From the NCBI GenBank assembly GCA_022496805.1, contig CM040092.1, positions 24,219,649-24,283,648 on the forward strand: a stretch of 64,000 bases of DNA, read 5' to 3'. Made by a program: the position numbers and the translations under genes. Source of the DNA: Pohlia nutans (taxonomy: Eukaryota > Streptophyta > Bryopsida > Bryales > Mniaceae). The notes beneath the pieces were generated by a model, which saw only the letters and a list, made by a program, of their open reading frames with translations, did not search any database and was not told the DNA's origin. Positions 84 through 56,056 of the stretch are shown piece after piece (positions within the stretch are counted from its first letter, which is position 1; each line of letters starts with the position of its first letter).

Positions 84-117
84 ATAACTCTCACACGTTG
101 ACTCACAAGCTATTTTA

Positions 118-860: not shown

Positions 861-861
861 T

Positions 862-1544: not shown

Positions 1545-1680
1545 GCAGACCAAACCATGTATATCACATTAGTGATGAGACGGGCTTGACGGGAATCGAA
1601 ACCCCGGTCACAAATTTGTAATATATAGTCTTTCCCAACCGACCACCACCTCATCACTTGGTGATCAAGCTCTCTAGAAA
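1545..1680 (-). repeat. Candidate tRNA-derived SINE
   Basis: On the minus strand a GTGGTCGGTTGG segment (near 1640) resembles a pol III A box, and GGTTTCGATTCC (near 1590) resembles a B box, with spacing compatible with a tRNA-derived promoter. The stretch does not fold into a recognisable tRNA cloverleaf. A SINE remnant is the likeliest reading; chance resemblance is possible. Confidence 0.4.
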
Positions 1681-1740
1681 GTTGAAACTATATTGAAACA
1701 ACAGAGGGTTTCATTGTTCTCGTTCCAACTGCCTGGTCGT

Positions 1741-2740: not shown

Positions 2741-2744
2741 ATGC

Positions 2745-3705
2745 TATAATCCAATATGGAACACATGCGGTATATCATTAATATGAGGGTATAACATCGT
2801 CAAAGGAATATTCTATAGTTGTTTAAGCACGAATATAACTATATGTCATTATCTAATAATAAACACATGCATCACATCATTTGGATGATGGTATAACATT
2901 GTGGAAGGCATATTCTATAGTTGTTTCAGCTCTGAATATAAATATTTGCCATTATCTAATACAAAACAAATGCGTCACATCATTTGAATGATGGTATAAC
3001 ATCGTGGAAGGCATATCCTATAGTTGTTTGAGCTCCGGATATCATTATATGGCATTATCTAATATAAAACACATGCGTCACATCATTTGGATGGTGGTAT
3101 AACACCGTGGAAGGCATATTCTATAGTTGTTTGAGCTCCGAATATAATTATATGCCATTATCTAATGCAAAACACATGCGCGACATCATTTGAATGATGG
3201 TATAACTTCGTGGAAGGTATATTCTATAGTTGTTTAAGCTTCGGATATAATTATATGCCATTATCTAATGCAAAACAAATGCGTGCCATCATTTAGATGG
3301 TGGTATAACATCGAGGAAGGCATATTCTATAGTTGTTTGAGCTCCGAATATAATTATAAGCTATAATCTAATATAAAACACATGCGTGACATGATTTGGA
3401 TGATGGTATAACATCGTCGAAGGCATATTCTATAGATGTTTTAGCTTTGAATATAATTATATGCCATTATCTAATGCAAAACACATGCGTGACATCATTT
3501 GGATGATGGTATAACATCGTGAAAGACATATCCTATAATTGTTTGAGCTCCGGATATCATTATATGGCATTGTCTAATATAAAACACATGCGTCACATCA
3601 TTTGGATGATGGTATAACATCGTGGAAGGTATATTCTATAGTTGTTTAAGCTCCAGATATAATTATATGCCATTATCTTGTATAAAACACATGTGTGATA
3701 TCATT
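2745..3705. repeat. 103-bp tandem satellite, about nine copies
   Basis: The marker CACATCATTTGGATGATGG recurs with little variation at 2873, 2976, 3079, 3182, 3285, 3388, 3491, 3594 and 3697, a constant 103-bp period. Units diverge by scattered substitutions but almost no indels. They contain no open frame of note. Unlike a CRISPR array, the whole period is conserved, with no unique spacers. Confidence 0.92.
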
Positions 3706-3814
3706 TGTTTCATGGCAGTGCTTGCTACTAGGCATTTGATATTATTGTTTCAGTGTACATGATGGATACGTGATTTAAATTTTTTAAATGCACAGTCTAT
3801 TTTTAAAACCGTAC

Positions 3815-4870
3815 CGGAACGTGTCTTATGTGATATCGAAACTCTATAAAAATCCTTCAAAATTTAAGGCTCTATGTATGAGAGTTTGGGAAGATTTAGA
3901 AGGTTGTGACTAATGTGACTAATGCCCTTTTGGGCATTAGTCACATTAGTCACAACCTATTTAATCTTCCGTAATTCTTACACGTTGACTCAAAAAATCA
4001 TCCAAATCATTCCTAATCTTACAATAGTACTAAATGAATATATTAACATAAATGATTGGACACCACACAACCTTTTTTTTTATTTTTTTGGGGTTTGAGA
4101 GTTGAAAAAATCTAAAAATTCTAACGTATTGTAAAAGTGTCCAATGCTCACAAAATTGTACCCGAACATGTCTTATATGGTATAGAAACTCTAGAAAAAT
4201 CCTCCAAAATTTAGGGCTCTACGTGTGAGAGTTAGGGAATATTTAGTAGGTTGTGACTAATGGGACTAATGCCCTTTTGGGCATTAGTCACATTAGTCAC
4301 AACCTATTAAATCTTCCGTAACTCTTACACGTTGACTCAAAAAATCATCCAAATCATTCCAAATCTTAGAATAGTACTAAATGAATATATTAATATAAAT
4401 GATTGGACACCTCACAACCTTTTTTTTATTTTTTTGGGGTTTGAGAGTTGAAACAATCTAAAAATTCTAACGTATTGTAAAAGTGTCCAATGCTCACAAA
4501 ATTGTACCCGAACATGTCTTATATGGTATAGAAACTCTAGAAAAATCCTCCAAAATTTAGGGTTCTACGTGTGAGAGTTAGGGAATATTTAGTAGGTTGT
4601 GACTAATGGGACTAATGCCCTTTTGGGCATTAGTCACATTAGTCACAACCTATTAAATCTTCCGTAACTCTTACACGTTGACTCAAAAAATCATCCAAAT
4701 CATTCCAAATCTTAGAATAGTACTAAATGAATATATTAATATAAATGATTGGACACCTCACAACCTTTTTTTTATTTTTTTGGGGTTTGAGAGTTGAAAC
4801 AATCTAAAAATTCTAACATATTGTAAAAGTGTCCAATGCTCACAAAATTGCACCGGAACATGTCTTATGT
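3815..4870 (+). repeat. Tandem 346-bp units, each with a hairpin
   Basis: About three head-to-tail units are offset by 346-347 bp (the ACGTGTGAGAG-type marker is at 3874, 4221 and 4567). Each carries one foldback of about 82 bp. The array is inverted relative to 862-1310. Confidence 0.88.
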
Positions 4871-5179
4871 GGATACCGGAACATGTCTTATACCAGAACA
4901 TGTCTCATTTGTATACAAAGTTAACAATGTTTTTGACTTGATCCCAAAACTAAGCTTTATTCTTTTATGATATCGTAAAAAATAACATATGACGCACGAA
5001 GGCCTAAGTAAGAGCGATGAATTTTGTTATTTTCCACAAAAGCGATAGCGTTATTTAATTATTTTCATTGCAAAAGAGGTTACAAATAGGGGCCAAGATC
5101 AATATAGACTTATGATTCCTTTGAGTATAAAATAAATAAATAAAACTACGGGCCAATGGCAATGGTGGTAGCGGCATAA
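4871..5179. other. Non-coding stretch
   Basis: No gene, RNA or clear repeat boundary was recognised here apart from short echoes of the neighbouring array (ACATGTCTTAT repeated near 4858-4905). Confidence 0.6.
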
Positions 5180-5864: not shown

Positions 5865-6639
5865 TTTAGAACTATATATAGTATTATAGTATTATAGTAC
5901 TTTTTGGACATCTTGTGTATAGTCTTGTACGCCTTTATTTTATATGAGTTCATGTACAATGAGATATTTGAATGAAAATATACATCAATCTTTTATAGCA
6001 TTTTCACCATTTTGAGGATTGAATGAAATGGAGCTTGACACAGAATTTTCTCATTTGTCATTGAACAATTCCTAGCGTGGAGTTCGTACTATATAGTTTA
6101 TGGGAAGTTGGCATTATGCATTATTGTAAGATTCTATTCGAAAAAGGATGATTTGTAAAATATTGTAAAACTTGTATCATGTCGTAGTGCTTCATCCAAA
6201 TATTTCAAATGTTTTAGAGTAAAAGTGTTGGAATTCCTGGAACCAATACAATTTTTAATATCACTACTCTTTAGAGTAGTACCTCAAACTAATTACAACA
6301 AATGTGATGAAGATTTCTTTTTTGGATAAAATCTCAAACTTCCCTTTGTATATCAATTCCAGAATAGTTTGCTAAATAGAAATTTATGATGATATAGGAT
6401 AAAATTGTCAATTCTAGAGACGTTTAGGAGTTAAATTGAAGGGTTTATCCTCGCCACCGGTGTTGTGCTCCGCTCAGGCTCTAGGTTCTTATTCCTTTTT
6501 CTTATAAATTTATAGCATCCTTTGTTCCCAAAAAAATTTGAATATAAACAATTAAATAAAAATTTGTGTTTAAGTTGTGTGCGTTCAAACCTCTGAAATC
6601 ACGACTATACTTGAACATGATTTGTTCTATAGTGCGTAC
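5865..6639. other. AT-rich non-coding stretch
   Basis: No supportable feature was found. There are only short open frames and A/T-rich sequence. Confidence 0.6.
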
Positions 6640-7240
6640 ATCTAATCTGTGATCTCTATCACAGACAAGTATCTCAACCCGGACGATGATCCATGGTCCT
6701 CCTTCCAGAGCGCGATTGCCGCATCTGCTTGTAGGGTCCTCGGAACTTGTAAGCGGCTTGCTAGATGAATGTCCCGTCTGCCCTTCCGCAGGCGGTGAAA
6801 GGAGGAGGGCGTTCTGACGGGTACACCATTTTTAAATCGAGGTTCTGCCATTTGGACATGCTGGATTACCAGAAATGCGCGATGTTTCCAGCAGGATGTG
6901 TGGCCAGCTTCGCGCATTGAGCAAGTGCTATGGGAGTTCATTCTTGATCATGGGTGTACTGCTTAGCAACGCACCCAGAGACTTAGTGAGCTCTACCCGT
7001 TGCAGGCTCTCAGATTTAGTGCTACATTTGATGCTATATGGTTGAGAACTCCGTTTTTTGGCTCTAGACACGGGGATACGGTTACATGGCATTTGGCTCG
7101 ACTGAATCCGGGCCAGTTGTACTAGGCCGCATTGGTCTGGTTGTAGTTGTACTGAAGTTGTTGTCTGAAAACCAAAATATTTTCGCCGGGGAGGGTTGTC
7201 TCCTCTGGTTTTAGCGTTTGTGACCCCATTCATTCAATGA
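6640..7240 (+). pseudogene. Degraded coding-like remnant, unassigned
   Basis: This block is less AT-rich than its neighbours. On the plus strand it yields coding-like stretches (for example around 6675-6770 and 6850-6945) broken by several stops. I do not recognise the family; a retroelement remnant is possible. Open frames on the minus strand over the same block look like shadows. Confidence 0.25.
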
Positions 7241-25608: not shown

Positions 25609-27766
25609 GTGCCCCCTTTTGAGGACACACTCTATAACACAATGCAAGTAACCAAAATATTAGGTAACTAGAATATATTATCTTTGTTTAGGATTGGGGT
25701 GATTATTTTGGATTGTTTTGTTTTGTGAAGGGGTGTTGTTTTAAGTGGTCACTCTTTGAAGTTGAATTACAATTGTGAGAAGTTAATGAGTTTAGGGTTT
25801 AGGGTTGCATGAGTGTTCTTAAGAAAGTTGACTTTCTAATTTAGGGTAGTGATTGCACCTACTTCTCCATTTTCAAGGGTTGCAACTCCAACGGTGTGGT
25901 TTTTTTATAAGGAAGTTCATCATTTGTGAGATATGGAATGTTTGACTTTGAGGGTTTGGTGTTGACTTTTGAGGTTTTGAGGTATTTTGGAATTTTGATT
26001 TGGCTAACCCCTCTTCATTTTCAAAGTTTACGAACACAATGGTGTAATGAGAATAGTCATTAGATGTTTGGATAGTGGGATATAAATGTTTTAGGTTTTG
26101 GGTTATGGAGGTGTTATAGTGAGACGGTTTAGGGTTACATGTGTGTTCCCTCAATTAGGGTATATTTATTTTTGGATTTTGAAGTGACCTACCCCCCCCC
26201 CCCCCCCCCCCAATTTTTGAACATGGTGAATCCAAATATGCAAAAAAATATTAAACTTTATCATGATTTTGGAGATATAGACACTTTGACTTCGTAGATT
26301 AGGGAGTTGACGTTGTTGATGTTTAGGTTTTGAACTTTTGAAGATACCCTATCCTCTATTTCAGGACCTTGTGATTCTAGTGGTGTATTTAGTTTTTCCT
26401 AAAAGTGTATAGTTTGATAGTTATTAAGGTTTCAAGGTATTTTGGTTTCTTCTTTATATCTACTTCTATTTTAGGGTTTAGGGTTTAGTGTTATATGGAT
26501 GTTCTTAAGAAAGTCGACTTTCTATTTTAGGATTGTGATTGCGCCTACACACCCCCCCCCCCCCCCCCCCCCGCCCATTTTGAGGGTTGCAATTCCAACG
26601 GTGTGGTTTTTAGGGTTTAGGGTTTAGGGTTACAAGAGTATCCTAGAGATTTTAGGTATTCTTGTGCATTAAGTATCTATAAGATGTAAGCACACCGTTG
26701 GAATCGTCTTCACGCAAGGATTCCAAAAAACCCCAAGCTTTTTTTGAAATTATAAGTTATGTGAAAACCCTAATTATGCCCTACTTTGGCCTACTTTTTC
26801 CCTAATCTACCCTAAGTCCTTTCCTAGCTTGTATTGGTTACAATCCCAGCAGAAGAGGACAAATTGAAGCCCTAGCACACTCTTGTACCCCTAACTTGCA
26901 CTAAGTCTGTCATTTTTGGTCTGTCTTCCAGTCTGTGTTGGTGTTGGCTGCAATTATCTTAGCCATGGCATTCCTAGAGCTAAGTAATCATTATAGCATG
27001 TACATGCATTCCTACTTCAATCTAATCTTGGTGCAATCTATTGTTCATGCTAGAAGCTTAAACTAACACAATACACTCATACACATTTCTGTGGCACAAA
27101 TCTATATATGCACAAATCAAAACATGCTCAGACATGTTGCTTCCGAAAGCGTCAGGGTCTCATGAATCCCCTGCCACAATGAAATGCTCCATTATAAGCT
27201 GATGTTAAACACTACAAGATCAGCAGTCTGAAACCGAAATGAGTGAGTCTAACAGTAGGTCTACAATGTACAACACGTAGAATGTCTAACAACTTAATTT
27301 ACTAACTTTGGCAATGCGATAGGTGCACCTTCTGCGACATAAACAATTCATGCAAATGGGATTTAACAATGCACTCTTAACATGAAAGAGAATATATGCG
27401 TGATTTTGAATGAGTCAAACAACAACGGCAGTATTTGTGGTGATAAGATGTTGCACGTGGTAACTGAACACATCAAAGCACCTCATTTGTTAATTTCATG
27501 AAACAATTCAACCCAAGAACACAACTGCATTGCTTTGAACTAATTCTAACAACGGATTACTCACAAGCATTGTCCACCTTAAACAAGGCTGACTATGAGA
27601 GTGACATAGAAACTACATAATACAACTAAAAAAAGACTACATACTACAACTAAACTAGAGATGACTAATTATGGCATAAGAAAAGTCAAGTTATAACATG
27701 CCAAAATAAGGACTCTTAGTATGAAACGGAGCAGTATGACAGTTGTCATGACCAACGCATGCCAAC
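25609..27766. repeat. Non-coding DNA with telomere-like and poly-C tracts
   Basis: Poly-C runs lie at about 26,192-26,211 and 26,551-26,572. GGGTTTAGGGTTTAGGG-type blocks occur near 25,795, 26,475 and 26,610, with related segments (TTGGAGATATAGACA, TGACCTACCCCC) that recur at 31,200-31,600 and 60,420-60,720. Beyond 26,650 no feature is supportable. Confidence 0.55.
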
Positions 27767-38978: not shown

Positions 38979-40222
38979 AATGGATTCTTTAGGTGTTGGA
39001 CTCCCGTCCAACTTTGGGAGCCCGTATGAAGGCATTGCTTTCCGTTAGAACATCGGAGGGACCAAGGGGGGGGGCACCGTTTGTAATATTTGTGATCTGA
39101 TCTTAACATATAGTGCGATGTTTATTCGGGCGCTGCTGTAGTTTTAGAAAACATTTTTGCTGGACCTAATACAGGTTCATCCAGTGTGTGTTAGTTCAAG
39201 TCTTCAAGAAGGTTTACCGTATCAGGCTTGCACGGCTTACTGACTCTTTCACATTTGAAGACATATGGAGAAGTGACATTGCAAATGATCTTTTACTTTT
39301 CAACTTAAAAAAGTTGCCCGAGTCTTCTCGAGAGGAAAAAGACAGACAGCAAGCATTGCCGGCAAACATGCGATCCAACCTCCTAGCGGACGAGGGGCAG
39401 AACGATTTTAGAAACAAACTACATTTATGAGATTTCCTCAGATTAGTTCAAGAATGTCAAAAGAAAGCATTTGAGAATGCTCATTATTTCGGCATTGGGA
39501 AGCCATGATGTTTACGAAGGATCTGAGGATGCTTTTGTAACTCTTGGTAATTGAGCCCTGGAAATAGTTGTCGGCCTTTAGCCGACAGTGACGACATCAA
39601 TCAGTCTGCAAGTGCGAGTTGATGAAGTCACTGAAATTTGGAAAATTCGATCATGGGTGTTGTACTCAACGAGAGCATGCGACATAAGATTTTTGATATC
39701 TTGAATAAACAGCTTGATCTATTGCTGCATGTCATTGATCACCTTCGGAACTCGAGCTTAAAGAATTCCGCGAACCCCGAGGCAAAAGCAGTCGAATGTT
39801 TGATATCACCAGATTTTTACTCTAGCCTCTCTTATCTTCGCAGTATAATGAGGTCCTAGGCAGGCATGAGGAACGGTGAATATGCTGAATGTTTAAGAAA
39901 ATTCTTGAGAGTTATGTTGCGAGATTGTGAAATGACTCAGGATAAACTATTTTCAAACGGAAAAAAAGGCGCTGTTATTGCACTTCGGTGGGGGCAAGTG
40001 ATAGAGCATTTAATTCGATCAAAAAAAGTTTTGAAGCTGTCATCAAGGCTTCATGAGATATTTTTCATGAAGTAATTGTATCTAAACAACAGCTGATACG
40101 TACGTTGTGATAGTTTTGGGTCACTTTGTGATACAAGTGGTTGAGAGGATGAATCCTATGCAGCTGGTGAATTTTATGTCCCGAACTGTTTTAGATAATC
40201 GCCTTCATGGGAGAATGTATCA
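38979..40222 (+). repeat. Left arm of a long inverted duplication (gene fragment)
   Basis: Bases from about 39,147 to 40,222 are mirrored at 40,306-41,381 with few differences (for example Ser/Gly, Asp/Asn and Ile/Thr in the encoded stretches and one 3-bp indel). The first part, 38,979-39,147, is mirrored at 55,878-56,056, on the far side of the 14.5-kb transposon. The encoded peptides (SFTFEDIWRSD; KIFDILNKQLDLLLHVIDHL; ECLRKFLRVMLRD) look like a helical host protein, but stops break them and I do not recognise the family. The spacer at the tip is about 83 bp. Confidence 0.85.
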
Positions 40223-40305
40223 GGTTGAGTTTTATAGGGCTGCTTTGATGGTCTTGCCCGTGGGTTCATCGCTGTCACCAGATGCTCGAAAATTACTCGC
40301 AGCTG

Positions 40306-41386
40306 GTACATTCTTTCATGAAGGCGATTATCTAAAACAGTTCAGGACATAAAATTCACCAGCTGCATAGGATTCATCCTCTCAACCACTTGTATCACAA
40401 AGTGACCCAAAACCATCACAACGTACGTATCAGCTGTTGTTTAGATACAATTACTTCATGAAAAATATCTCATGAAGCCTTGATGACAGCTTCAAAACTT
40501 TTTTTGATCGAATTAAATGCTCTGTCACTTGCCCCCACCGAAGTGCAATAACAGCGCCTTTTTTTCCGTTTGAAAATAGTTTATCCTGAGTCATTTCACA
40601 ATCTCGCAACATAACTCTCAAGAATTTTCTTAAACATTCAGCATATTCACCGTTCCTCATGCCTGCCTAGGACCTCATTATACTGCGAAGATAAGAGAGG
40701 CTAGAGTAAAAATTTGGTGATATCAAACATTCGACTGCTTTTGCCTCGGGGTTCGCGGAATTCTTTAAGCCCGAGTTCCGAAGGTGATCAATGACATGCA
40801 GCAATAGATCAAGCTGTTTATTCAAGATATCAAAAATCTTATGTCGCATGCTCTCGTTGAGTACAACACCCATGATCGAATTTTCCAAATTTCAGTGACT
40901 TCATCAACTCGCACTTGCAGACTGATTGATGTCGTCACTGTCGGCTAAAGGCCGACAACTATTTCCAGGGCTCAATTACCAAGAGTTACAAAAGCATCCT
41001 CAGATCCTTCGTAAACATCATGGCTTCCCAATGCCGAAATAATGAGCATTCTCAAATGCTTTCTTTTGACATTCTTGAACTAATCTGAGGAAATCTCATA
41101 AATGTAGTTTGTTTCTAAAATCGTTCTGCCCCTCGTCCGCTAGGAGGAGGTTGGATCGCATGTTTGCCGGCAATGCTTGCTGTCTGTCTTTTTCCTCTCG
41201 AGAAGACTCGGGCAACTTTTTTAAGTTGAAAAGTAAAAGATCATTTGCAATGTCACTTCTCCATATGTCTTCGAATGTGAAAGAGTCAGTAAGCCGTGCA
41301 AGCCTGATACGGTAAACCTTCTTGAAGGCTTGAACTAACACACACTGGGTGAAACTGTATCAGGTCCAGCAAGGATGTTTTCACGC
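40306..41386 (-). repeat. Right arm of the inverted duplication, inner part
   Basis: Reverse complement of 39,147-40,222. The arm is cut at its outer end by the transposon that starts at 41,387; its continuation lies at 55,878-56,056. If transcribed through, the two arms would give a hairpin with about 1.07 kb of stem. Confidence 0.85.
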
Positions 41387-42181
41387 GAGAATGCTAGCAT
41401 GTGAGCCTGGGAGCGGAGAGCCGGAGGGCTCAGGAGCCTGTGAGCTTAGGTTTTTCAGTGGTTGTTTATGTTTTTTTGGAAAAATACCTTTGACCGTGGG
41501 ACTAAGATTCAGAGTTTAGGCTGTATTTTTGGATCCATATTTTAAGGTTTTATAATTTTGGATATTGTGTCCATTATGTACAAATTTCTAATTCGGTTTA
41601 GAACTAAGAAATTCCATAGAGATTGAGCATAGGTAATTAAACAACAGTAGTGAACATTACAATTTTAAGAGATCTAAGAGTACAATAGAGAATGTTAAGA
41701 AGAATAACACGGATTGAAAAATATAGGTTTAGTGGCCTTTTTAGTCTCACTACTATTTCATAAAAAGGTAAAGAAATACAAAACGAACGGCACTATGACG
41801 AATCATCACACGAGTCCTCACGTGAAGAAGATGACGATGTAGACAAAGAGCAAGAACTATGGGTGCGAGAAGACTCCGCAACTTCTACATCCATGAATCG
41901 AGAAACACCGGTATCAGCAGATCGCTCTGTCATCTCCACGTCATCAATGCTCTGTTGTGCAAATGTTCCAACGAGGGGCTCCGCGTACATGGGGAGCTCA
42001 AATGGTTTAGTTGGACTAGGGAAGAAACCGTAGGCAGCAAAGAACGGCTTGTGTCGAGGAGGGCTCATTCGGATTGAAGGTCTATAAAACATAGGAAATA
42101 CATTAGATCTTTGAGTTGCATGTCATCATCACGGGTTACGGTCATCATATAGCAAGCTAATTTAAATCCAAACAGACTTAC

Positions 42182-43214
42182 TTACTCTGACGTCTTCTCT
42201 TGATTTGCGTCAGCACGATCTCCATGGTATCGGGATCTTGAGAATGCTTCGATGCGGACGGCCGTTGTGAAGAGGAGGTAGCCTTTGTACGCTGAAAAGA
42301 ACCGATGAGTACATCATAAATAGCTTTGTCCTCCTCTAAAGCCACGATGTGGCGGTTGACGTTCCCGTATGCATGAATCGAAGCGCCTGGAACACACATA
42401 CACATACACGGAGTTTATAAGAGTATTGTCAATGTCCAGTATGAATCACGTCCTCGATGTGCAATCTAATTAATACGAACGGTTTAGGGTTAGAAATTAC
42501 CGGTCACGGCATTGCAATCAACAACAACGTCTGTCGGTTTTGAGCAAGCCTCAATAAGAACTTGCGGGAAGCCTCTGCTCTTTTCGCGCGGTCCACGCCA
42601 GGGCGTGCTTCCGTTCATTGCCTGGTCAGATTTGGTGGCGTAGTTCTGCAGCCACTCGTCTAATCCAATGTCCACATCCACGTCGTTCATGGACGACACT
42701 GGATTGAATTTGAAGTTCGAGCCTTCCTTCGTCACCAGCAGGTAGGCACCAAATCTCTGCATCTGATACATTATCAGACACGGAAGACCACATACGAATG
42801 AAGTTATTGACATTGAAACAACATTAACAATAACATTTGAAGTTTGGTAAAGAAGTAAGTACAAATTTACCGTTAATTGCTCATTAGCCGGATAACACAA
42901 ATGCAATCGATTCATGCACACCCAATTTTTCCGTTCTACAAATACGTCGTTGCATATCTGAGAACAGCTGATTTCACCACCACGTCGTACGGGTGGATGA
43001 CGACGATGGCTCCATCATCTTGAAGGTGGTTATCTGCGAAGTAAAAAATGGCAGCAAAATTGGCTGGAATAAACGTGTTTCAGCGTGGGACCTCGTTGGA
43101 AGGGTGAGATACAATGGGGACGCGCAGATCCTCTTGGTAGTCCACCAACATGAGGTCAACAGTTCCCTTTGCATTGCGGCGTCCACTGAACATGCGATCC
43201 CGATCCCCTCGCTG
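42182..43214 (-). other. DNA methyltransferase-like domain of the cargo gene
   Basis: Exons 11-13. The order of motifs (IV-like first, an X-like PQVLIEACSKP segment, then I-like VVVDCNAVTG and an acidic ALEED strand end) is that of beta-type N4-cytosine/N6-adenine methyltransferases. The catalytic (D/N/S)PP(Y/F/W) is not intact: DYQED stands there. A TGA (43,080-43,082) and a frameshift near 42,940 interrupt exon 11. Whether the motif IV change is family-typical or local decay cannot be told from one copy. Confidence 0.5.
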
Positions 43215-45022
43215 CTGCAAAATATTCAAAAAATATATGATTGATCAAGTGCACAACACCAAAAAGTTGTTGCAAAGATTTTGAAATGAAAAGCGCTCAT
43301 GAAGAAGAGAGAACGATGATCATGAGCAATACTTTATCGAAGAATGTCAGGATTTCCTGGAAGGCGGGAATGGCAGGTTTATCCTCCGGCAAGAGCGACC
43401 CAAACGACAAATTCAGGAAGAGCTCGTCATTTACCAAGTCAGCCTCATCCGCGACAACAACGGCAACAGGACCTTGGGTCAATCGCTCTTGTGTGAATGA
43501 GATGGGAGGAAATTCTCGTTTTTTAACCACCTCCTTTGATGCACGATTGCTTTGGGCCTCTTCCACCACCGCAGAGTCGTTTGTGTTAGCAACAACATCC
43601 GCTTTCGCCTTCTTCCCCTTGCCTTTCTCTGCCTTCAACTAATTCTTTTTGGCCTCCTTTGCCTTTTGCGCTTCTTCCTATGCAATCTCTCTCTCGAACA
43701 AGGCTTTAATGTTCTCCTTCTTCTTCATATCCTGGGCATGAATCTTCGCGATTGCTTTAGCTCTCGCAGCGTCGTCCATGAAGCCATCGTTTTCGTCGAG
43801 GAGGATGACTTTCTTTGCATTCTCGGTTGAGTCGTAAAGGGACTGCTCGACCTTCAGTATGTGTTTTAGACCACACTCGAGGTACCAGCCAGCGCCTCGA
43901 AGATGAGCAGAGGTCCACGTCTTCATCTGATATGAATTGAACATGCAGGTCAAACTGAATAGATCACTCCACAAGCACAGGAAGGGGGGTAAAACATCCT
44001 TGCTGATAGCCTTCTTGGGAACCAGTTTCAACATAAAGTACCTGCGTAAATTCAACATTAAGGATACATGTAACGTCATCAACAGTTATAAAGAGTTATA
44101 ACGGAAAGACATTTGCGAATTTACAAAGCATACCGGTAAATGACACGGTTGACCAGAAGCGGCGCATCCGCGTGTTTGGAGAAAATGTTAGCCTTCTTAA
44201 AGTCGGATCTCCTGAACAAGTCTGTGAAGTCGATGTCCTACAGCTTCATTCTCCACTTCTCGAGATAAGTGGAGATGCTATCAGCAAGAGTGTAATCAAT
44301 GACGAGGTTGTCCTTCTCTGCGATGGAGGTGAAGGTCTCAACGGCGGCATCCATGTACTGAAAAAAACCAATTGAGAGTTATTAGCAATTGAGTCACAGA
44401 ACAAACGATCACAATTCAAGCTCAAATAAAGAAACTTCTCAAATCCTCACCCCCGCATACCAAACCGCCTTGTCTAGCCATAAACTGAGAACCTCCTCAC
44501 TGGTCTTCGCAGGGAACTTTCGAGCAGCCCGAGTTTGAGGAGAGCTGTTCCACCAAACCAACCAGAAAATCTTCCTTTTAGGGCTCGCCTTACACGTTGC
44601 AATGAATTGCAGGTTGTCTAGTTGCATCTCCGGCTTTAATGAGTTGTGGGCATAGTGTTTCTCGATCTGAACAAATGAGATGAATTAGATATGAACTTTA
44701 ATCAAGAGCATGACAGGAATGGAAAGGTGGCTAGTGAAGACCTCTTGCAAAATCCGGTCATCGTAGATCAGATTCGCAACAGATGTCATCTTCCGCAAGT
44801 TTGTCTTCAACTGTGAGGTCTTGTCTTTCATGCCTTTCAAGAACGCTGTTTTGATGGCGGCACTGGTTATATTCTCTTCTGGCGTCTCCTCACAATACTT
44901 CTTGACCTCTTCATCTCCTGCCTTTGCTATGTCTTGGTGTAAACAGAAGTACGAGAAAACAATGAGATATTGAAATTGGATGTAAGAGAAGTGACAGTAG
45001 GAATGCAATGGAATACACTTAC

Positions 45023-45934
45023 ACGAAATATCAGTGTAGTGAAGATGTCTGCAGGGAGACTAAACGATGATTGTCGAGCATAGACCTTCGCACGCTCGAA
45101 ATCGGAAGCACTAATGATGCCCTTCATTTGCTCAACCGGCATCAATCCGAACTTGCGAACTTGGTACAAATCATGAACCAAGTTCGTCTTGACGTGCGAA
45201 CTCTCGGTTGATTTGCACCGACCAATTTGAACAATCGAAACACTATCAGTATAAAGAGAATGTCAGAATATCAATAATTAATAAAGATTTGAGCATGACT
45301 TACTTATCAATGTCGTGCATAGCCTGCATGACGGCGCCGATACAACCTTTGGTATCAAGGAGGATGGAGTCAACGGAGTAATGCCACTTGCCCTCTCCTA
45401 AATGATCTCGACAGATCACAGTCATCCACGCCTGCAATCGGTGGTTGCCATCGCAAACGTAAAACTTGACATTGCTCAGATGTTGCAAGGAAGGTTTGCT
45501 GAGCAGGAACTCTTCGAATAGCATATCCGCAGCTCGCCAATGCCCATTCCAATGCTGGCGATCATCATTGGAGACTTTTTGAACAACCCTTGCTCGTCGG
45601 TTGTGGAAACATAGAAAACTGCGGCTCCCTCTCGGTATCCGTGGACGAATTCAGTTTCGAGCATAGCAAGGTCACAAGACAGCGCGGGCCGAACGATGGG
45701 CATCGTCACCATTCGACAAAGAGGTATTAACATGCGTGAGTCTTCAATTGGAGCAATCCGGAGCTGCTTAATCGTAGAGACGGAGTTGAGGGTGTTCATG
45801 GTACGAAGTTGATCTGTGGAAAGGTCTGCCACGTCCATTTCGTTGACATCGTTAATTTCGTCATCAGACTGTCCAAGAGCAGGCTGAGGATCTTCATCAT
45901 CGAAATGAGCGGCAACATTGGGATTCATTGGATT
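45023..45934 (-). other. ParB/Srx-like domain of the cargo gene
   Basis: Exons 5 and 6. Residues before the frameshift (near 45,590) read ...CDLAMLETEFVHGYREGAAVFYV in shape; I describe only the motif. After it comes a helix and the core DGNHRLQAW, matching the G-x-x-R signature of ParB N-terminal and sulfiredoxin-like folds. The next exon starts with QIGRC and continues as helices. The frameshift fits loss of one base or gain of two, and joining the frames restores a continuous domain. Confidence 0.55.
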
Positions 45935-46189
45935 CTGAAACATGGTGGTGAAATAACAAATCAAGCACAGAATCAAACTATAAGTTGCCCAAAGCAGATT
46001 ATCAACATGCAGAACTAGGCCAACCGTCTACAAACTCCCCTCCCACGAGCTGAAGACCGCCTACCCTGTCCACGAAAGTCTGGGATGCTAACACCTCGTA
46101 GGGGAATCGGTGAATGTGAAACATCCATCTCAATGGTATCCGCGAACAATGGGGACGTAGGCACAAACTCATGAAGAGAACTAGATACA

Positions 46190-46575
46190 AGCCCTCGAGG
46201 AGATCTGGGATCAGATTCCGGAGGAGAAGTAGGTACGAACCCAGGGGGAAAAATAACATCCGACTCCGGCGGGGAAGTAGGTACAAACCCTCGAGAAGAA
46301 GTGGGATCAGACTCCGGAGGGGAAGTAGGTACAAACCCACGAGGAAAAATATCATCCGACTCCGGAGGGGAAGTGGATACAAACCCTCGTGGAGAAGTGG
46401 GATCCGACTCCAATGGGGAAGTAGGTACAAACCCTCGAGGAAACATGAGATCGACCTCCGGAGGAGAAGTAGGTACGAATCCTAGAGAAGAAGCGGGAAC
46501 ACAGCCCGGCGGGGAAGTGGGCACATACTCAGGAGGCGAGGTGGGAATATACTCTCTAGAGAATGAAGAATACGG
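46190..46575 (-). repeat. 16-residue (48-bp) repeats coding a CTD-like tail
   Basis: Within exon 4 of the cargo gene, six copies of GFVPTSPPESDPTSPR-like units follow shorter EYIPTSPPEYVPTSPP words. The (Y/F)VPTSPP core resembles the YSPTSPS heptad of RNA polymerase II. The protein is likely disordered here. The open frame on the opposite strand is a shadow. Confidence 0.8.
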
Positions 46576-47204
46576 TGGGCTGCATACGGGAATGAACTCA
46601 TCACCCGTGCTAGGACCAGACGGAATTGTAGTGAACAAACCACGTGGATGAGAACCTAAGGGGTGAGGATCTACACTAGCCACCTCCAGGTACTCACTAG
46701 GGCAGGTGCAAAAGTGATTGACATCACTGTCCAAATCACTGAGATTGATAATCTCGTCGATGTCAGCTACATTGTCCGCAACGGAAACCTAGAAGGAGAA
46801 TTAGAAACCACTCAATAAATTCCAATCACTAGATTTAGATGACTGAACTGTAGTACCATAATTACATGTAAATGAGACTATACCTCAGAGAGAGGGGGAG
46901 GACGAGACGAAGTATCGTCCGCCAAATCCACTCCAACACGGTGCTGCGAAACAGACGGAGTTTCTTCGACCACATTATCAGAACCCTGAATACAATGAGA
47001 ATACACTAAAATCCAGCAACAAAGCGAATTTGAAGCACAATGTCATGAACAAACATCTAATAAAGTATCATCTCGAGGGTCTGATATGAAAATAAACCAA
47101 GCCGAATTTCCTCCCCGCCACACGCAAGGAGAATTGTCTGCATTATTGTGCAGTTGAAAGGCAAGATGGGAGGCCTCACATTTAAAAATACCATGCTAGT
47201 TTAG

Positions 47205-50165
47205 CCTCCACCATGAGGGTGGTCATATTGCCTCCACCCCAGGGGGGGCTAAACGAGCTTAAATATTTTCCAAAAAACCGAACGTATAAGGCCCGACAAC
47301 GAGAAAAGCAAGGCCGGTTAACCCCTCTCCAAGGGGACGGCGGAACCGCCGCCGCCCTCGCAGGGGGTAAACCGGACCCAATTGTTTCTACCTCATCCGG
47401 TTATTGGGTGGCTGATCAGCAAAAATAGGCATGGCCAAATTACCCCCCCCCCCCCCCACAAGGGAGGCGGCGGCAGCGCCGCCGCCCTCATGGGGGGGGG
47501 GGGGGGGAAACTAGACCCATTTTTTTCTACCTCGGCCGGTTTCTGGGTGGCTGATTAGCGAAAAAGCGTCGCCGGTTTACTTCCTCCAAGAGGAGCGGCG
47601 GTGCCGCCGCTCCTCTGGGGGGAATAAACCGGACCCATTTTTTTCTACTTCGGCCGGTTTTTGGGTGGCCGATTAGCGAGAAAAGCATGGCCGGTTTTAC
47701 CCCCCCCAGAAAGGCGGTGGCGGAGCCGCCCCCACCAGGGAGGTAAACCGAACCCCTTTTTTTCTACCTCGGCCGGTTTCTAAGTGGCCGATCAGCAAAA
47801 AAGGCATGGCCGGTTTACCTCCCCCGGGAGGGCGGCGGAGCCACCGCCCCCCTAGGGGAGAGTAAACCGGACCGATTTTTTTCTACCTTGGTTGGTTTCT
47901 AGGTGGCCGATCAGCGAAAAAGGCATGGTCGGTTTACCTCCCCCAAAAGGGCGGCGGTGCCGCCGTTGCCCTAGGGGGAGGTAAATCGGACCCATTTTTT
48001 TCTACCTCGGCCAGTTTCTGGGTGGCCGATTAGCGAGAAAAGCATGGCTGGTTTACTCCCTCCAGAGGAGCGGCGGCACCACCGGCCACCTCAGAGGGGG
48101 TTAACCAAACCGTTTTTTTTCTACCTCATCCGATTACTGGGTGGCCGATCAGCAAAAAAGGCATGGTCAGTTTAGCCCCCCCTAGCCGCCGCCCTCCTGG
48201 GGGGGGAAAACTAGACCCATTTTCTTCTACCTCGGCCGGTTTTTAGGTGGCCGATCAGCGAAAAAGGCATGGTCGGTTTACCTCCTCCAAGGGGGCGGTG
48301 GCGCCGCCTTTGGGGGTTTACCCAAGGGGATAAACCAGACCCATTTTTCTCTACCTTGACCGGTTTTTGAGTGGCCGATCATTAAAGAAGGCATAGCTGG
48401 TTTACTCGCCCTAAGGAAAGCGCCGCCGCCGCCGCCCTTCTGGGGGAGGTAAACCAGACCCATTTTTTTCTACCTCGCCCGGTTTCTGGGTGGCCGATTA
48501 GCGAGAAAAGCATGGCTGGTTTAGTCCCCTCCGAGGAGCGGCGGCGCCACCGGCCACCTCAGGGGGGGTAAACCAAACCCTTTTTTTTTCTACCGCGGCC
48601 GGTTTTTGAGTGGCCAATCAGTAAAAAAGGCATGGCCGGTTTATCTTCCCAGGGAGGCGGCGGCGTCGCCGCTCTCCTTGGGGGTGATAAACCGGACCCA
48701 TTTTCTTTCTACCTCGGCCGGATTCTAGGTGGCGGATTAGTGAGAAAAGCATGGCTGGATTACCCCTCCCCAGAGGGGCCGCGGCGGCGTCGCCGTCCTT
48801 AGGGAGGGTAAACCGAACCCCTTTTTTCTACTTCGGTTGGTTTCTGGGTGGCCGATTAGCGAAAAAGGCATGGCAGGTTTCTCCGCCCCCCAAGAAAGCG
48901 GCTGCGCCGCTGCCTTTTTGGTGGGAGTAGACCGGACCCATTTTTTTCTACCTCGGCCGGTTTCTGGGTTGCCGAACAGCGAAAAAAACATGGCCGGTTT
49001 ACCTCCCTCTGAAGTAGGCGGCGGCGGCGGCGCCACCGCCTCCCTTAGAGGGGGTAAACTGGACCCATTTTTTTCTACTTTGGCCGGTTTCTGGGTGGCC
49101 GATTAGCGCAAAAAGCATGGCCGGTTTACCCCCCCCTAGAGGGGCGGTGGCGCTGCCGCCTACTTGAGGGGGGAGTAAACCGGACCCATTTTTTTCTACG
49201 TCGGTCGGTTTCTGGATGGCCAATCACTGAAAAATACGGGGCCGGTTTACGCCGCCCAAGGGGGGTTAGCTGGACCTATTTTTTTCTACCTCGGCCGGAT
49301 TTTGAGTGGCCGATCAGCGAAAAAGGCATGGCCGGTTTAGCCCTCCCAAGAGGGCGGCGGCGCCGAGTCCCTAAAGGGTGGAAAATCGGACCCAGTTTTT
49401 TTGTACCTCGGCCGGTTTCTAAGTGGCCGATCAGCGAAAAAGGAATGGCCAGTTTACCTCTTCTAGGGGAACGGCGGCGCTACTGCCATCCTGGGGGGGG
49501 GGGGGGGGGGGGTAATCCGGACCCATTTTTTTCTACCAGGGTTGGTTTCTGGATGACTGATTAGCGACAAAAGCATGGCCGGTTTACCCCCCGCAAGGGA
49601 GGCGGGGATGAACCGGACCCATTTTTTTCTACCTCGGCCGGTTTCAGGGTGGCCAATCACCGAAAAATGCATAGCCGGTTTACCCCGCACGAGGGGCGGA
49701 AGCGCAGCCACTTGGGGGAGGGGGATAAACCGGACCCATTTTTTTCTACCTCGGCCGGTTTTTGGGTGGCTGATTAGCGACAAAAGCATGGCCGGTTTAC
49801 CTGTCCCAAGGGAGGCGGCGGCGGCGCTGCCGTCTTGGGGGGGAGGGGGTAAACCGGACCTATTTTTTTCTACCTTGGCCGGTTTCTGGGTGGCCGATTA
49901 GCGATAAAAGCATAGCCCGTTTATCCCCGCTCAGGTGGGCGGTGGCGCCGCCGCCTTCTTGGGGGAGGGGGGGGGGGGGGGTAAACTGGACCCATTTTTT
50001 TCTACCTCGGCCGGTTTCTGAGTGGCCGATCAGCGAAAAAGGCATGACCGGTTAACCCTCCCTAGGGGGGCGGCGGCACCGCGGTCCGGGGGGGGGGGGG
50101 TAAGCCGGACCTAATTTTTGCCTCCTCAACCGGTTTTCTAAGTGGCCAAGAAGCGATAAAGGAGC
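47205..50165. repeat. 119-bp GC-palindromic satellite, about 25 copies
   Basis: The word TTTTTCTACCTCGGCCGG recurs every 119-120 bp (near 47,521, 47,640, 47,760, 47,879, 47,998, 48,118 and on to about 50,010). Each unit has GGCCGATTAGCGAAAAAGGC, a GGCCGGTTTACC word and a GC-rich inverted repeat of variable length (GGCGGCGGC...GCCGCCGCC) bordered by C- and G-runs. The array lies inside intron 2 of the ParB-methyltransferase gene. The many open frames across it are artefacts. Confidence 0.93.
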
Positions 50166-51535
50166 CACTTTTTTAACCCTTAAGCGCAATTTTTACGCCG
50201 CGTGGGCAGAATTACCCAATTACTTGCTGCAATTTCATCTTCTCAATTGCTTGCTAGTGGCATTAGAGCTGTTTGAAATGATGAATTGTAGGTACCTTAG
50301 GCCATTTGTGATAGATATATTGATTATAAATTTGTATTAGAGCTAAAATGAGAGTGGCAGATTGCGTACCATTCTGTATTGCTGGACGCTGCAACGAGTT
50401 TGAGGTGGTCCTCGTCCTACAATGCTTGGTGCTGGGAGCCCTGAGCCACTCGCCATCGCACAGAAATTCGCAATGTTCTTGTTCTGCAAGCCAATCATGT
50501 GACATTGTTTAGCTAGGGTGACCCTAAACCAAAGGATCTTGCACACAACATATTTGCACATTATGCAGTCTAGAACTTCTATCAACAACCTAGATTCTAG
50601 AATATGCTTCTAATATTGTGATCCTACAGCCTGCACTCACATCTTCGATGTTACAGCGCGAACAGAAAATCCATACTGTAGAGATTATCAGTGATAGATT
50701 GTTGAGAGTGAGTCACCAGCGATAGTTATGAATCTAGATTCTAGAACCCTACACCGCGGCCGACTGTTCCTACATGTCAAAACAGTCTGTGAAACTTCAA
50801 CGAGAACATGAGATTCTAGAGAAGTGGTAGAGAGATAAGATTCTACAACACGTGTCAATATCTTACAATCTAAACCTCACATGTAGGAGTACTAGAAAAC
50901 GACAACGACAATTACATCACGAACTAACGAGGTCGTGCAAAAGTGAGCTATGGAAACAAATGTTAACGTGTAATGCAAGAGGCGACAATTGAAAATTTCC
51001 TTCGCTAGAACCTAATACATAGTCAATGAGCATTGAGATTGTGTGAGGAGTTTAGATAAGATATTGCTAACAAGGAATTAGGGCCACGTGCTCGAAGTTT
51101 GTTATGGACCACAAAAATTAGTGGACCACAAACGTTGGACCACGCGCGGCCGCCACAAGTGCGCCATCGTGTGGGCGGCGCGTGTCTAGTGCGTGGCCAG
51201 CGCGTGGCGCGGCCGCCGCAATTTTATTTTTGTTTATTTTTGAATCAGTATTTTGAATGAGTTTAAGCATGGAAACTTACCCCTCCGGAATCGCATGTTA
51301 GATCTTGAAACCCGAGTGCTTCAAAATCTATAGCCTTCGGAATATTGTCGTCCGCCTCTGTTACTCTTGACTTTGTTTTTGTTTGCCGCATTCTACTGCG
51401 CTCTATTGCCTTTCTAGTGGAGAATCTTACTTTCGACTTCTTCCTTCCTTTGTCTCGCATGGCCGGTCTTCGAATTTTATCCTCGTTGTTCTCCTCTTCA
51501 CTCTGCCCCTCAGCTCTGCAATCTTCGCGTAGCAT

Positions 51536-52252
51536 CTATTCGGTCTCTAAACTGATCAACAAAACTCTAAACATTCGCAATCACGCCAAACCTCCCTAAT
51601 CATCTGCGTGACAGAAGTCACCGTGAAATCGCTCAGTAGTCTCAAATGTTTTAGTGCTCTCAATACCAGTTCACAGATGGAATGTTGGGCCCTGATTATT
51701 GTCTTATATAGGGTACATGACTGATTGGATGAGAGCTTTTCATTCCTCGTCCATTCAATATTCAATGTACTCTGTCATTCCGAGTTGCAAGTTGTTTTGA
51801 CTCAGATCCAACCACATTCCTTAAATGATTTCTGCCGCGCCTGTCTTCAGTCGAAAGCAGTCAGCGGTTTTTTTAGTTTAGAGTGCATATTTAAAGACAG
51901 ATATCGCTGGACCAGTTAAACAGAATCTCGTATGTCAGCCACCCACGCACGATGCCAATGAACCTCTTTAGTCCACCGTGGACAGTATAGAGCGTATGGT
52001 ATGACTCCTTTCGCAGTTAACAGCCTCTACCGAGATTTTGGTTAACCACTCTGATTCCTCTACGGTAGATGCTCCGATCTACGCCACACAGTGTTCTCAA
52101 ACTCCCCAATCCACTCGTTCAGCAACAGAGATTATCCTCAAACTTAGCAAGGTCAAACAAGAGCATCTCTCTCCGATCATAGAATTGTCTAGTGAATTGG
52201 AAGGAGATACACCTGCAAAGTGTATGTCTATTGAAAGACGGTCTTCGATTCC
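51536..52252. promoter_or_regulatory. Intergenic region between divergent transposon genes
   Basis: About 0.7 kb separates the two head-to-head start codons (51,535 minus; 52,253 plus). A shared promoter for the transposase and the cargo gene is likely by position. An open frame at 52,038-52,355 in another phase may be a true upstream part of the transposase joined by a lost or shifted base. No specific promoter element is certain. Confidence 0.4.
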
Positions 52253-55200
52253 ATGTCCACTTCCTTTCAGCCTGGTTCTCATACACCAAGCAATAGTCCG
52301 TCGTCATCGTCGTTGTCTCGACCTCCTCTCTATCCTTCCTTTTCAAATTCACTGAGTATTATACAATCTCTCAAGAAATTATCTAGCATTCAGGGGTGCC
52401 AGAACAAACTTGCCCAAATTGATTTCGATGCCATCGAATATCAAAGGGTGCAATTCTTGCCTCCATCCTTTGATGGGGATGTTGTGTTTGAACTTCCACT
52501 GTGTTGCGGCACTGTTTATTCCTCAAGTGCCAAAAGCATAGAGGGAATGGACAAACGATTTGATGGCCACGCTTGGACGCGCACCCTCACGTCTAACATC
52601 CACAATAATCTTGGACTGAAGTTTAAAAGGTCAGGGTGCGTGGGCCACTTCATTTGTAATAATGTAGGTTGTGATTACCTAAAACACACTTCCAAGAAGA
52701 ACAAGACGGAATGGAGGGGTACCAGTCTAGGTCCATTCTATGTAGGATTGGGCCCCCAGCCAGAGTCCTCGTTGGTTTGCAGAGTCTGCAAATCAATTCC
52801 ATCCTACCATGCGGTTTGTGCGGCGCGTATCTATTATATGTTTAATGTGCTAGATAGGTCGAGGGCATGCATTCATTTAGGACATCATCGCCACCCCGTT
52901 GCTTCCGAAAAATGCCGGGAATCCGTGGAGACTATCACCGGCTTGATCGCATCTGAAGTGGAGAAGACATTAACAGCCAACATCTCTGCTATTGCATTGG
53001 CAGCTAGTAAAGAGTTCATGGACACCTTCTCAGTCCACACCGGGCCCCGTCCAAAAGATATGTTGCGCGGCCTAGAACTGCATGAAGTCATGGACAAGTT
53101 CCGCATGTTTAGCTCTTCCAATATCCGGAATATCATCGCATCATTCCGTGCAGGCGCCAAAGGTAAAGGAGAAATTGACCGGATTCTAGAGATGAAAAGG
53201 GTCGCAAAGATGGAGTTCATCCACGACAACATCTTCCATGGGCAAGGTCAAGACAAAGTATACCTCTTCAAGATGCTCGTGGACGGTCCCGGTAATGGAG
53301 TTGACATCGTCTTGCGAATGCAACCCGATGGCGACCTTCAGAACTGCTTTGTCATGTTCGACCATGTGAAGCGGGTAAAGCCTTTGACAACACTGGCCTG
53401 TCACGTGTACGATTCCACCTATTGCAAAGTCATGACGATTGCGGTATGTGCCATACAGTCCGAAGGTACGGATAGTGAAGTGATTTTTTGGAACTGCCTC
53501 AACAAGGTCATGGCTAGAAATGGTGTGCCTCAGCCTAACTTCAAAGGCTTCATGTGCAATAGTGCACAAGCCAACTTCAACGCGGTTCGCATTGTTTATG
53601 GATCTGGGGACCCATCCGTGGTGATGGTTGACTGGGAAAGGACTTGTTTGTTTCATTGGTCTACAAGCATGCACAAGCATACTGAGAAGCTCATTGCTAA
53701 ATCTTTCCGAAACGAACACATCAAGCTCTGTAGGCAGTACAAGGATGCTAAATCCATAGCGGAAGCGGATCTGATGTATCAGGAGCTTCGAGCCTGGTAG
53801 TACTCCTCCGGAGCAGCAATTAAAGATGCAATCAGAGAACTAGAAGACTGGCTGGCCTTTTGGCATTTCCGCTACTGCTAGTAGAGAGATTTCATAGAAA
53901 CGGTGAGTCCTCGCAATCCCCTTAAACTGACTTCATGGTCTTGCGCACGGTAGGACTATCTAATGAAGTATGACCTATACATCTATTCCATTAAACATGT
54001 ATTTCATCTAACCTGTCCCTCCTTCTCTATTCATAACCTTACACCCGAGGAACTAGCGGATATCCCAACTTACAATCTTGCGGAGACAGTTCACAACAAA
54101 TGGTTGCAGTCTTCGGGCAATCGAGGATCAGACCTCTTTGTTGCAACCACCGACGATTGGGCGCGGGCATTCATGCAGATGACCAACTACCGTTCCTACT
54201 TGTGTGGCGGGGCGTCTGGAAAAGGCCCCTCTAAACAACACTTGAAACTAAAAAGAGCCTTGCAATCACAAGACGGTAAAAAGATTGCTGATGCTCTTGC
54301 TGAAATGCCGAGGGGTCAGGATTTCTGCAACCGTGTACCGTATCTAGAGGGTGAGGAGGTGTTCGGATCCACCAAGAGAAAGCTAGACATGCCCATTGGT
54401 TCAGAACGGGACCCACATCGCCCTGACAAGGTCAACTTCTCCCACCCTCGTGTCCAAACAAGGTCCGCTGCTACTCGAATGATTGCTATTGACGCACGTA
54501 CTCCTGAAGCTCTTGTGCCCTTCACATCAAGCGTATTGGAAATAGACTGTGACGTGACCAAATGGCACATCGCGCTGATAAACCATAAATCCAAGAGACG
54601 ATGTCACGTTGTACAAGCAAACAACAATTCCAAGTGCCAGATGCTTATCGTCAGAGGAGGCAAAGCAACTACAGCTCCCACCTACAGAGGCGTCAAACAA
54701 AAGTGGCGGGCAGAGGGAACTGATACTGAAGATTTCTGGTTTTGTCCTGATCAAATTGTCAGATGCAAAATGGGTCCTAAACGTGGCTTTGTCTTAACGC
54801 GTCCGGAGCTCCGAGATGTTTGGCTAGTCTTAACTGGAACGGACCTCTCGCGTCACGAGATCTTGGAGCTCTAGTAGGCAGGTTTCCACCTTCAATCTAC
54901 AACTACGCTCTCGCCTCGTCGTCTCTTCGAAGGGTCGAAGGTGTTTGAGGCGGTCTTGTGGACTCATCCTAAACCGCCCCATTCTGATCGAGTTCCCACC
55001 ATCCGGAGCGGCAAGTACGTGCGCCGCAACACCAACGCTCCAACAGAAGCTCACCGCAACCAGTGGGAGAGTGCTCGCAACATGAAGGCAACTATTGTCC
55101 GAGTGAACCTCCTTCCATATCCGAGACTGGGTGCGATGATTGCCCTGCAATCAGGAGTCGAACCAAACGCGAACGTCTACAACATCACTCTTTGCAACTT

Positions 55201-55411
55201 CCCAGCTTGTACGTGCCCGTATTATAACAACATGGCTTCTTCTGCAATTGGAAGGCGTGGAATGTACGTCAACTACAAGCACCTTTACTATGTCTTTCGC
55301 TTCCTCTGCAAGCTAGACTACAAGGTTGACACCTTCATCCATGCCCCTACTCTAAGCAGGAACGAAGTCCAACAGCTTTTGGTAGCTGCAGGGATAATCA
55401 AGATGCCTTAG
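52253..55411 (+). pseudogene. MULE transposase with SWIM zinc finger, inactive copy
   Basis: An N-terminal Ser/Pro-rich part is followed by a Cys/His-rich finger (C..C and CIHLGHHRHP, near 52,660-52,910), as in WRKY/GCM-like folds of MULE proteins. The MULE domain has VYDSTYCKV (first Asp, near 53,410) and GFMCNSAQAN (near 53,550), where MADSAQ with the second catalytic Asp is usual: here Asn. Then TAG at 53,798 (Trp expected), TAG-TAG at 53,879-53,884, an intron from 53,903 (GTGAGT) to about 54,027, a continuing frame with TAG-TAG at 54,872-54,877, and a SWIM region ACTCPYY...VNYKHLYYV (55,206-55,300) in which the CxH Cys is Tyr. All parts share one frame. Domain order is typical of MULEs. 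It is the divergent partner of the ParB-methyltransferase gene. Confidence 0.85.
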
Positions 55412-55877
55412 CGATATGTGCAATGTTCTGTCGTGTTGTCGCATCTCGATGACTGCAAAATATCCATTCTATTTTCACTCTTGGTCTTTAGATGGGAGAC
55501 TAGATGTAGACTCATAGCCTACTATTATGAATTCCTACACCACTAGCACTTCTACTTGGTTGAAAAGCCTTCTCGCTAAGTTTGAATACTATCACAATGT
55601 ATTTAAAAAATTCAAAAAAAGTAATCCTACATATAGCTCCAATTATCTCCCATTCTTTGTTTTCTCCCGAATTTATCACATATTGACTATAAACATTATA
55701 CACCCTAAACCCGAAACCACGGTTGTAGGTCCAGCGGTCATAGGACCTATAAATTACCAAAAATAGTAACTAATCTAAAAATAAAATTTTATTTTCTAAA
55801 AATAGAGCCCATTTTTAAAATTGTCAGTTCTCTAGGCTCTAGGCTCTCCATTCTAGGCTCGCACGCTAGCGTCGTTG

Positions 55878-56056
55878 GTTTTCCCGCTCTGCAGCTGCGC
55901 CCGGATAAGCACCGCACAATATGCTAGGATCAGATCACAAAGATCACGAACCGTGCCCTCCCGCCTGGAGCACCCTCCGGTATTCCAATGAAAAGCAATA
56001 CCTTCATATAGGCTCCCAAAGTTGGGCAGCAGTCCAACACCTGAAGAATCCATCTA
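55878..56056 (-). repeat. Outer part of the inverted duplication, separated by the transposon
   Basis: The reverse complement matches 38,979-39,147 (shared coding-like segment GVGL-NFGS-YEGIAF and the CGGGCGC end). It continues the right arm that stops at 41,386, so it gives independent evidence that the DNA between is an insertion. Confidence 0.75.

What the first reader, a model, noticed from the sequence alone, without database searches (positions are those of the whole stretch)
41387..55877. A 14.5-kb MULE-type transposon that carries a ParB-methyltransferase gene next to its transposase
Seen: related terminal repeats at both ends (GCTAGC, GAGCCT and GGAGAGCC words in matching order), 10-bp flanks identical at nine positions, two divergent genes inside, and a host segment continuous across the insertion, with a related uninterrupted version in the left arm near 39,142-39,152. 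Known: MULEs make 9-11-bp duplications, and some (VANDAL, MuDR) carry second genes, including factors that counter host silencing. Inference: this family pairs a transposase with a DNA-modifying-type protein, perhaps for methylation or silencing control.
Basis: partly seen in the sequence, partly recalled or inferred. Interest (0 to 1): 0.9.

Follow-up and report, generated by a model that had tools for sequence, protein, structure and literature searches.

The report
Moss transposon carrying ParB-methylase-like gene
This is a decayed copy of a numerous DNA transposon of a moss-like plant that usually travels with a second gene, whose protein joins a bacterial ParB-type domain to a methylase-like domain lacking the usual catalytic signature, next to a patch of tandem repeats that differed in each of the six copies read.

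Summary
The element is 41387-55877, with a 10-bp duplication (9/10) and ~30-bp imperfect inverted ends; leaving it out restores a match, gapless across the junction, to the other arm of the host palindrome. The host genome (698 Mb, probably a moss) was searchable. Five further copies carry both genes (one transposase truncated); the four whose two ends were read have 10-bp duplications (9-10/10). Of 61 scored transposases of one class, 40 have a ParB exon within 15 kb, 39 divergent (chance mean 0.6). So the pairing is a real transposon family, MULE-like by duplication length and motifs, without a Pfam MULE match. The window copy is dead. New here: the ParB fold is supported by a model, the methylase motif DPPY reads D-x-x-E in all 15 sequences covering it, yet those exons show dN/dS 0.12-0.28 in the one pair measured. 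Each of six copies has its own tandem array between the genes, even where coding DNA is 88-97% identical. This resembles the VANC/VANDAL anti-silencing pattern; the role is inferred. ParB-methylase transposon genes are already published from algae: a new variant, not a new kind.

The parts
41387..55877 (.). whole transposon copy (14.5 kb)
   Evidence: duplication, ends, empty-site alignment; collinear copies elsewhere in the genome
41377..41386 (.). left target-site duplication GTTTTCACGC
55878..55887 (.). right target-site duplication GTTTTCCCGC
41393..41422 (+). left terminal inverted repeat core (GCTAGC...GGAGAGCC)
   Evidence: copies c1, c2, c3, c5 begin with close variants such as CGGGGGTGCTAGTATGTGAGC
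55842..55870 (-). right terminal inverted repeat core
   Evidence: copies c1, c2, c3, c5 end in close variants of TAGCGTCGTTG
41780..46990 (-). ParB/methylase-like gene, about 12 exons (approximate hand model), broken by two frameshifts and several stops in this copy
   Evidence: homologues of three exons
46178..46536 (-). tandem peptide-repeat stretch (48/96-bp period, 16 aa, VPTSPPES-like)
   Evidence: reading frame
45304..45934 (-). ParB-like exon (CDGNHR motif), frameshifted in this copy; limits approximate
   Evidence: 343 homologues at E<=1e-3, 120 listed; ParB/Noc-type fold of a relative
42871..43214 (-). methylase-like exon with the motif IV position (VDYQE instead of DPPY); limits approximate
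42501..42762 (-). methylase-like exon ending at the motif I position (DCNAVTG); limits approximate
   Evidence: PF01555 match E 0.0023, 18.3 bits, below Pfam's cut-off of 26.7
47300..50148 (.). 24 tandem dyad-symmetric repeats of ~119 bp between the two divergent genes
   Evidence: 24 units on the plus strand; 22 matches also on the opposite strand; no covariation support for a folded RNA
51968..55411 (+). transposase gene (one intron about 53903-54034), with 5 in-frame TAG stops outside the intron and catalytic D to N at 53558
   Evidence: relative L001 has an intron at the same place and no stop in the spliced frame
38980..41386 (.). host palindrome (left arm 38980-40223, right arm from 40303) into which the element inserted; the right arm continues at 55888-56053

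Best explanation
Shown: this is a dead copy of a high-copy, two-gene, MULE-like DNA transposon of a moss-like plant. A transposase gene and a divergent ParB/methylase-like gene lie together between short inverted ends that make 10-bp duplications. Inferred mechanism: the ParB/methylase-like protein is not a working methylase but a sequence-specific, cis-preferring DNA-binding factor. It would load on the tandem repeat array lying between the two promoters of its own element, and there keep the element expressed against host silencing (or control its transposition), as VANC proteins do for Arabidopsis VANDAL MULEs. Arrays and the ParB/methylase-like half would diversify or be exchanged together, so each lineage recognises its own array. 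Likelihood: identity of the element about 0.95; array recognition by the ParB-like protein about 0.5; anti-silencing as the outcome about 0.4.
Confidence: 0.45

Rival explanations
1. The protein is an active N6-adenine or N4-cytosine DNA methyltransferase that marks its own transposon, as suggested for the Ectocarpus Sola1-1 protein.
For: PF01555 matches 6 of 16 members, all below its cut-off; the order of the parts fits permuted amino-methylases, motif IV position before motif I position (the order is recalled); published suggestion for a related architecture (PMC12477816, passages).
Against: 0 of 15 sequences covering motif IV have DPP(Y/F/W): they read D-(Y/V/L/I/M)-(P/Q/L)-E, 10 rows and 5 copies, not all independent. 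0 of 14 covering motif I (9 and 5) have the first glycine of FxGxG; they read D-C-x-x-(M/A/V)-T-G or close variants. The canonical motifs are recalled, not from a call.
Confidence: 0.15
2. The ParB/methylase-like protein takes part in transposition itself (for instance bridging the ends or helping integration, as reported for the product of mudrB), not in silencing control.
For: Frequent pairing with the transposase; ParB-type folds make clamps that bridge DNA (general knowledge); GAGC-containing words near both ends.
Against: Does not by itself explain why the arrays between the promoters differ between copies.
Confidence: 0.3
3. Passenger: a captured gene and neutral minisatellites without function for the element.
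For: MULEs acquire extra reading frames and host gene pieces (PMC6446971, abstract and passages); arrays can expand neutrally.
Against: Pairing kept in two transposase classes that are about 68% identical; dN/dS 0.12-0.28 between c1 and c2; many ParB rows without inner stops.
Confidence: 0.1

Closest known systems
[quoted passage not shown] Petroll 2025: not seen)
   Different: Reported as Sola, whereas here 10-bp duplications and transposase motifs point to MULE-like; here the methylase catalytic motif is altered; the sequences of the two were not compared.
VANDAL/VANC (Arabidopsis MULEs; PMC5735166, passages)
   Same: Second gene in a MULE; target motifs in tandem repeats of non-coding parts that vary between related copies; tandem peptide repeats in the protein
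   Different: Homology of the proteins was not tested; anti-silencing not tested here; VANDALs lack or have short degenerate TIRs (PMC6446971, passages)
MuDR with mudrA and mudrB, maize (PMC6446971, passages)
   Same: Two-gene MULE with a helper-type second gene
   Different: No ParB or methylase-like domain is known to me for the mudrB product (recalled)
Bacterial ParB/Noc/KorB
   Same: N-terminal fold of the model
   Different: No ParB Pfam match in six members scanned; DNA binding and CTP use untested; here joined to a methylase-like part

Membership tests
Mutator-like elements (MULE) | 8-11-bp target-site duplications | tested here: met
   10 bp: window 9/10, c1 9/10, c2 10/10, c3 10/10, c5 10/10; c4 left end not in the fetched stretch; 8-11 bp as in PMC6446971
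Mutator-like elements (MULE) | terminal inverted repeats | tested here: met
   short (~30 bp), imperfect, conserved between copies; 14-500 bp reported for MULEs, some without
Mutator-like elements (MULE) | DDE triad with C/D(2)H after the second D and a long insert before E | tested here: met
   relative L001: D(49)D(131)E, CLFHW 29 aa after D2, residues assigned by eye; published distance in prokaryotic relatives 11-19 aa (PMC3942029), so the spacing is longer here
Mutator-like elements (MULE) | SWIM-type zinc finger, frequent not universal | tested here: inconclusive
   CxC...CxH by eye in L001; no Pfam SWIM match
Mutator-like elements (MULE) | sequence kinship to known MULE transposases | tested here: inconclusive
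   none of 12 members matches a Pfam MULE model; no PDB match; no tree or fold model was made, hence 'MULE-like'
ParB/Srx-type domain | ParB N-terminal fold | tested here: met
ParB/Srx-type domain | CTP use and sequence-specific DNA binding | not testable with these tools
   needs protein
N6/N4 amino-methyltransferase (PF01555) | Pfam cut-off score | tested here: not met
   best 18.3 bits against 26.7 (hand-joined window protein); 6 of 16 relatives match weakly
N6/N4 amino-methyltransferase (PF01555) | catalytic motif (D/N/S)PP(Y/F/W) | tested here: not met
   0 of 15 sequences; motif recalled
VANC anti-silencing system | second gene of a MULE whose targets are tandem-repeated, copy-variable non-coding sequences | tested here: inconclusive
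   second gene and copy-variable arrays are there; that the arrays are its targets is not shown
VANC anti-silencing system | protein binds the repeats and causes hypomethylation | not testable with these tools
   needs ChIP/EMSA and bisulfite data

The most novel reading that the evidence does not exclude
Probability: 0.3. Interest if true: 0.9.

Novelty: new variant of a known kind. Interest (0 to 1): 0.72.

Why it matters
ParB-methylase accessory genes of transposons were proposed, in algae, to bind and chemically mark transposon DNA (PMC12477816, passages). This family suggests that in a moss-like plant the protein persists under constraint without the usual catalytic motif, next to copy-private repeat arrays. 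That makes a specific question testable: do transposons repeatedly evolve sequence-specific readers paired with fast-changing tandem repeats to escape silencing? If so, the VANC case is one instance of a general strategy, and one genome here offers a large natural series of copies (150 ParB exons scored in each of two searches) to test it.

Tried and rejected
Rejected: (1) stop-codon reassignment. All five in-frame stops of the transposase outside the intron are TAG, but relatives have W, Q, W at the first three, 15 of 26 one-step departures are C-to-T/G-to-A, and other copies show TAA, TGA and TAG: ordinary decay. (2) Folded-RNA reading of the 119-bp repeats: dyad symmetry is clear, but covariation does not stand out from shuffles (89 of 500 reach the score, 46 of 500 the cells changed on both sides). 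(3) A common YGAGC motif: enriched in four of the six intergenic stretches (c2, c3, c4, c5) and not in the window copy or c1. (4) Linkage through equal contig lengths in the protein searches: 22,362 bp recurs for ParB and methylase exons; by eye no listed length links either to a transposase, and the ParB list shows 120 of 343. Superseded by the genome search. (5) Origin in phages: tblastn of P0118 and P0159 against the phage records gave nothing convincing. (6) Contig scans: two viral scans found no relative; of two genome-contig scans the ParB one found none and the transposase one found L001. (7) Methylase structure model: too poor to use. Literature: nine paper searches; in the listings, titles and abstract starts shown and the passages I opened (PMC12477816, PMC6446971, PMC3942029, PMC5735166, PMC13317346) I saw no ParB-methylase gene described in a MULE or in a moss transposon. 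Most listed papers were not opened, lists were capped, subscription papers are mostly not held, and Petroll 2025 was not held.

Full report
1. The element. Flanks 41377-41386 and 55878-55887 agree at 9 of 10 positions; random pairs of window 10-mers reach that at 9.5e-5. The ends align over 30 columns, 24 identical. Leaving out the element and one copy of the duplication gives an alignment without a gap at the junction to the left arm of a host palindrome. The window matches the plant U3 family. The genome holding the window is 697,796,988 bases in 332 contigs, close to the 698.20 Mb in the abstract of the Pohlia nutans genome paper (PMC9247546, start of abstract in the search listing); that the host is this moss is my inference.

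2. The genes. The plus-strand transposase (51968-55411) has 38 homologues at E<=1e-3, the closest long one 67% identical. The window copy has TAG stops at 53798, 53879, 53882, 54872 and 54875 (a sixth, 53951, lies in the presumed intron), a catalytic D to N, and 15 of 26 one-step departures from conserved residues are C-to-T or G-to-A, against 13.6% expected without any bias. The minus-strand gene has about 12 exons by hand model, with two frameshifts and several stops. Its ParB exon has 343 homologues, 120 of them listed; 18 of the 25 aligned end at the same exon boundary. Its methylase-like exons have 16. One contig length, 22,362 bp, recurs for ParB (P0041) and methylase exons (P0161, P0165), which suggests one contig.

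3. The family. After many unanswered requests the own genome could be searched by protein. P0039 (ParB) gave 150 scored of 1488 first-look candidates and P0118 150 of 1514; P0002 (transposase) 61 of 2951 and the c1 transposase 61 of 2932. Scored counts are lower bounds and candidates are not confirmed copies. Of the 61 P0002-class transposases, 40 have a P0118-list ParB exon within 15 kb, 39 of the 40 divergent; shuffled positions give a mean of 0.64 and a maximum of 4 in 1000 draws. With the P0039 list the figure was 20 of 61, 19 divergent. Of the 61 of the second class, 34 have a partner within 15 kb, 34 divergent (null mean 0.49, max 3), using 103 of the 150 P0039 rows. The misses there are 11 of 45 in the closer class and 16 of 16 in the 74-76% class; for the latter, by eye, the P0118 list holds divergent partners for at least three (C7:24804864, C10:20421306, C10:19078380). 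Copies c1, c2, c4 and c5, read below, are among those counted.

4. Five fetched copies. c1 (C8:18.14 Mb), c2 (C17:19.89 Mb), c3 (C5:27.15 Mb), c4 (C1:31.30 Mb) and c5 (C2:48.16 Mb) carry ParB, methylase-like and transposase parts in the same order. The first transposase exon is truncated in c3 and has one stop in c2; none was seen in c1, c4 and c5. Full lengths are 14,468, 14,426, 12,143 and 16,359 bp for c1, c2, c3, c5, with duplications 9/10, 10/10, 10/10, 10/10; c4's left end lay outside the stretch. Window and c1 align at 72.7% over the ParB half, 79-84% over most of the transposase half and 70% over the last 249 bp.

5. MULE-like. In L001, a contig of a cyanobacterial bin that looks like plant contamination, the transposase is open once one intron is removed, and shows D(49)D(131)E, CLFHW 29 aa after the second D, and CxC...CxH. 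A C/D(2)H signature after the second D and a long insert are published Mutator features (PMC3942029, passages). No Pfam MULE or PDB match was found, so I write MULE-like.

7. Arrays and mosaics. The window has 24 units of ~119 bp between the genes. All six copies have tandem repeats there, of different sequence: the four top 10-mers shown for each occur 0-2 times in any other copy over the stretches counted. c4 and c5 (coding segments 89-94%) and c3 and c4 (88-97%) have different arrays. In c4 the same unit also fills the stretch near its left end. c1 and c2 differ by dS 0.056 in the transposase exon but 0.46-0.75 in the ParB and methylase exons, align at 80% over the ParB half and 89-94% over the transposase half, and are unaligned over most of the array stretch. 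This fits exchange of halves between elements; uneven rates or gene conversion are not excluded. VANC targets in Arabidopsis show the same style of tandem-repeat turnover (PMC5735166, passages).

8. Reading. The composite transposon is established. A ParB-methylase accessory gene was already reported in an Ectocarpus Sola element, with green and red algal cases cited (PMC12477816, passages), so this is a new variant: another superfamily by duplication length and motifs, a moss-like host, high copy number, an altered catalytic motif and private arrays. The anti-silencing role is inference by analogy; that the arrays are bound by the protein is untested.

Noticed in passing
38980-41386 and 55888-56053: Palindrome arms agree at 49-50 of 50 bases in the 50-bp bins inside the insertion point (45 of 50 in the bin next to it, 21 of 24 in the innermost), but at only 37-41 of 50 beyond it: as if arm-to-arm gene conversion stopped where the transposon separated the arms.
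   Followed up: partly
6601-6823: Plant U3 snoRNA gene or copy (Rfam RF01847, 113.5 bits).
   Followed up: no
2727-3850 and 281-616: Other tandem arrays in the window: 103-bp and 13-bp spacings.
   Followed up: no
1-4872: Complex of direct and inverted repeats of about 90-370 bp, possibly another nested element.
   Followed up: no
25790-25862 and 26476-26548: TTTAGGG-type words inside an 86% identical direct repeat pair.
   Followed up: no
L001, L002, L003: A cyanobacterial metagenome bin (CADCWO01) carries a relative of the transposase and, on another contig, a distant ParB exon: probable plant contamination of a public bin.
   Followed up: partly
L041 2-851 (c4): A 12-bp unit repeated about 70 times near the left end of copy c4, the same unit as in its intergenic array.
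   Followed up: partly
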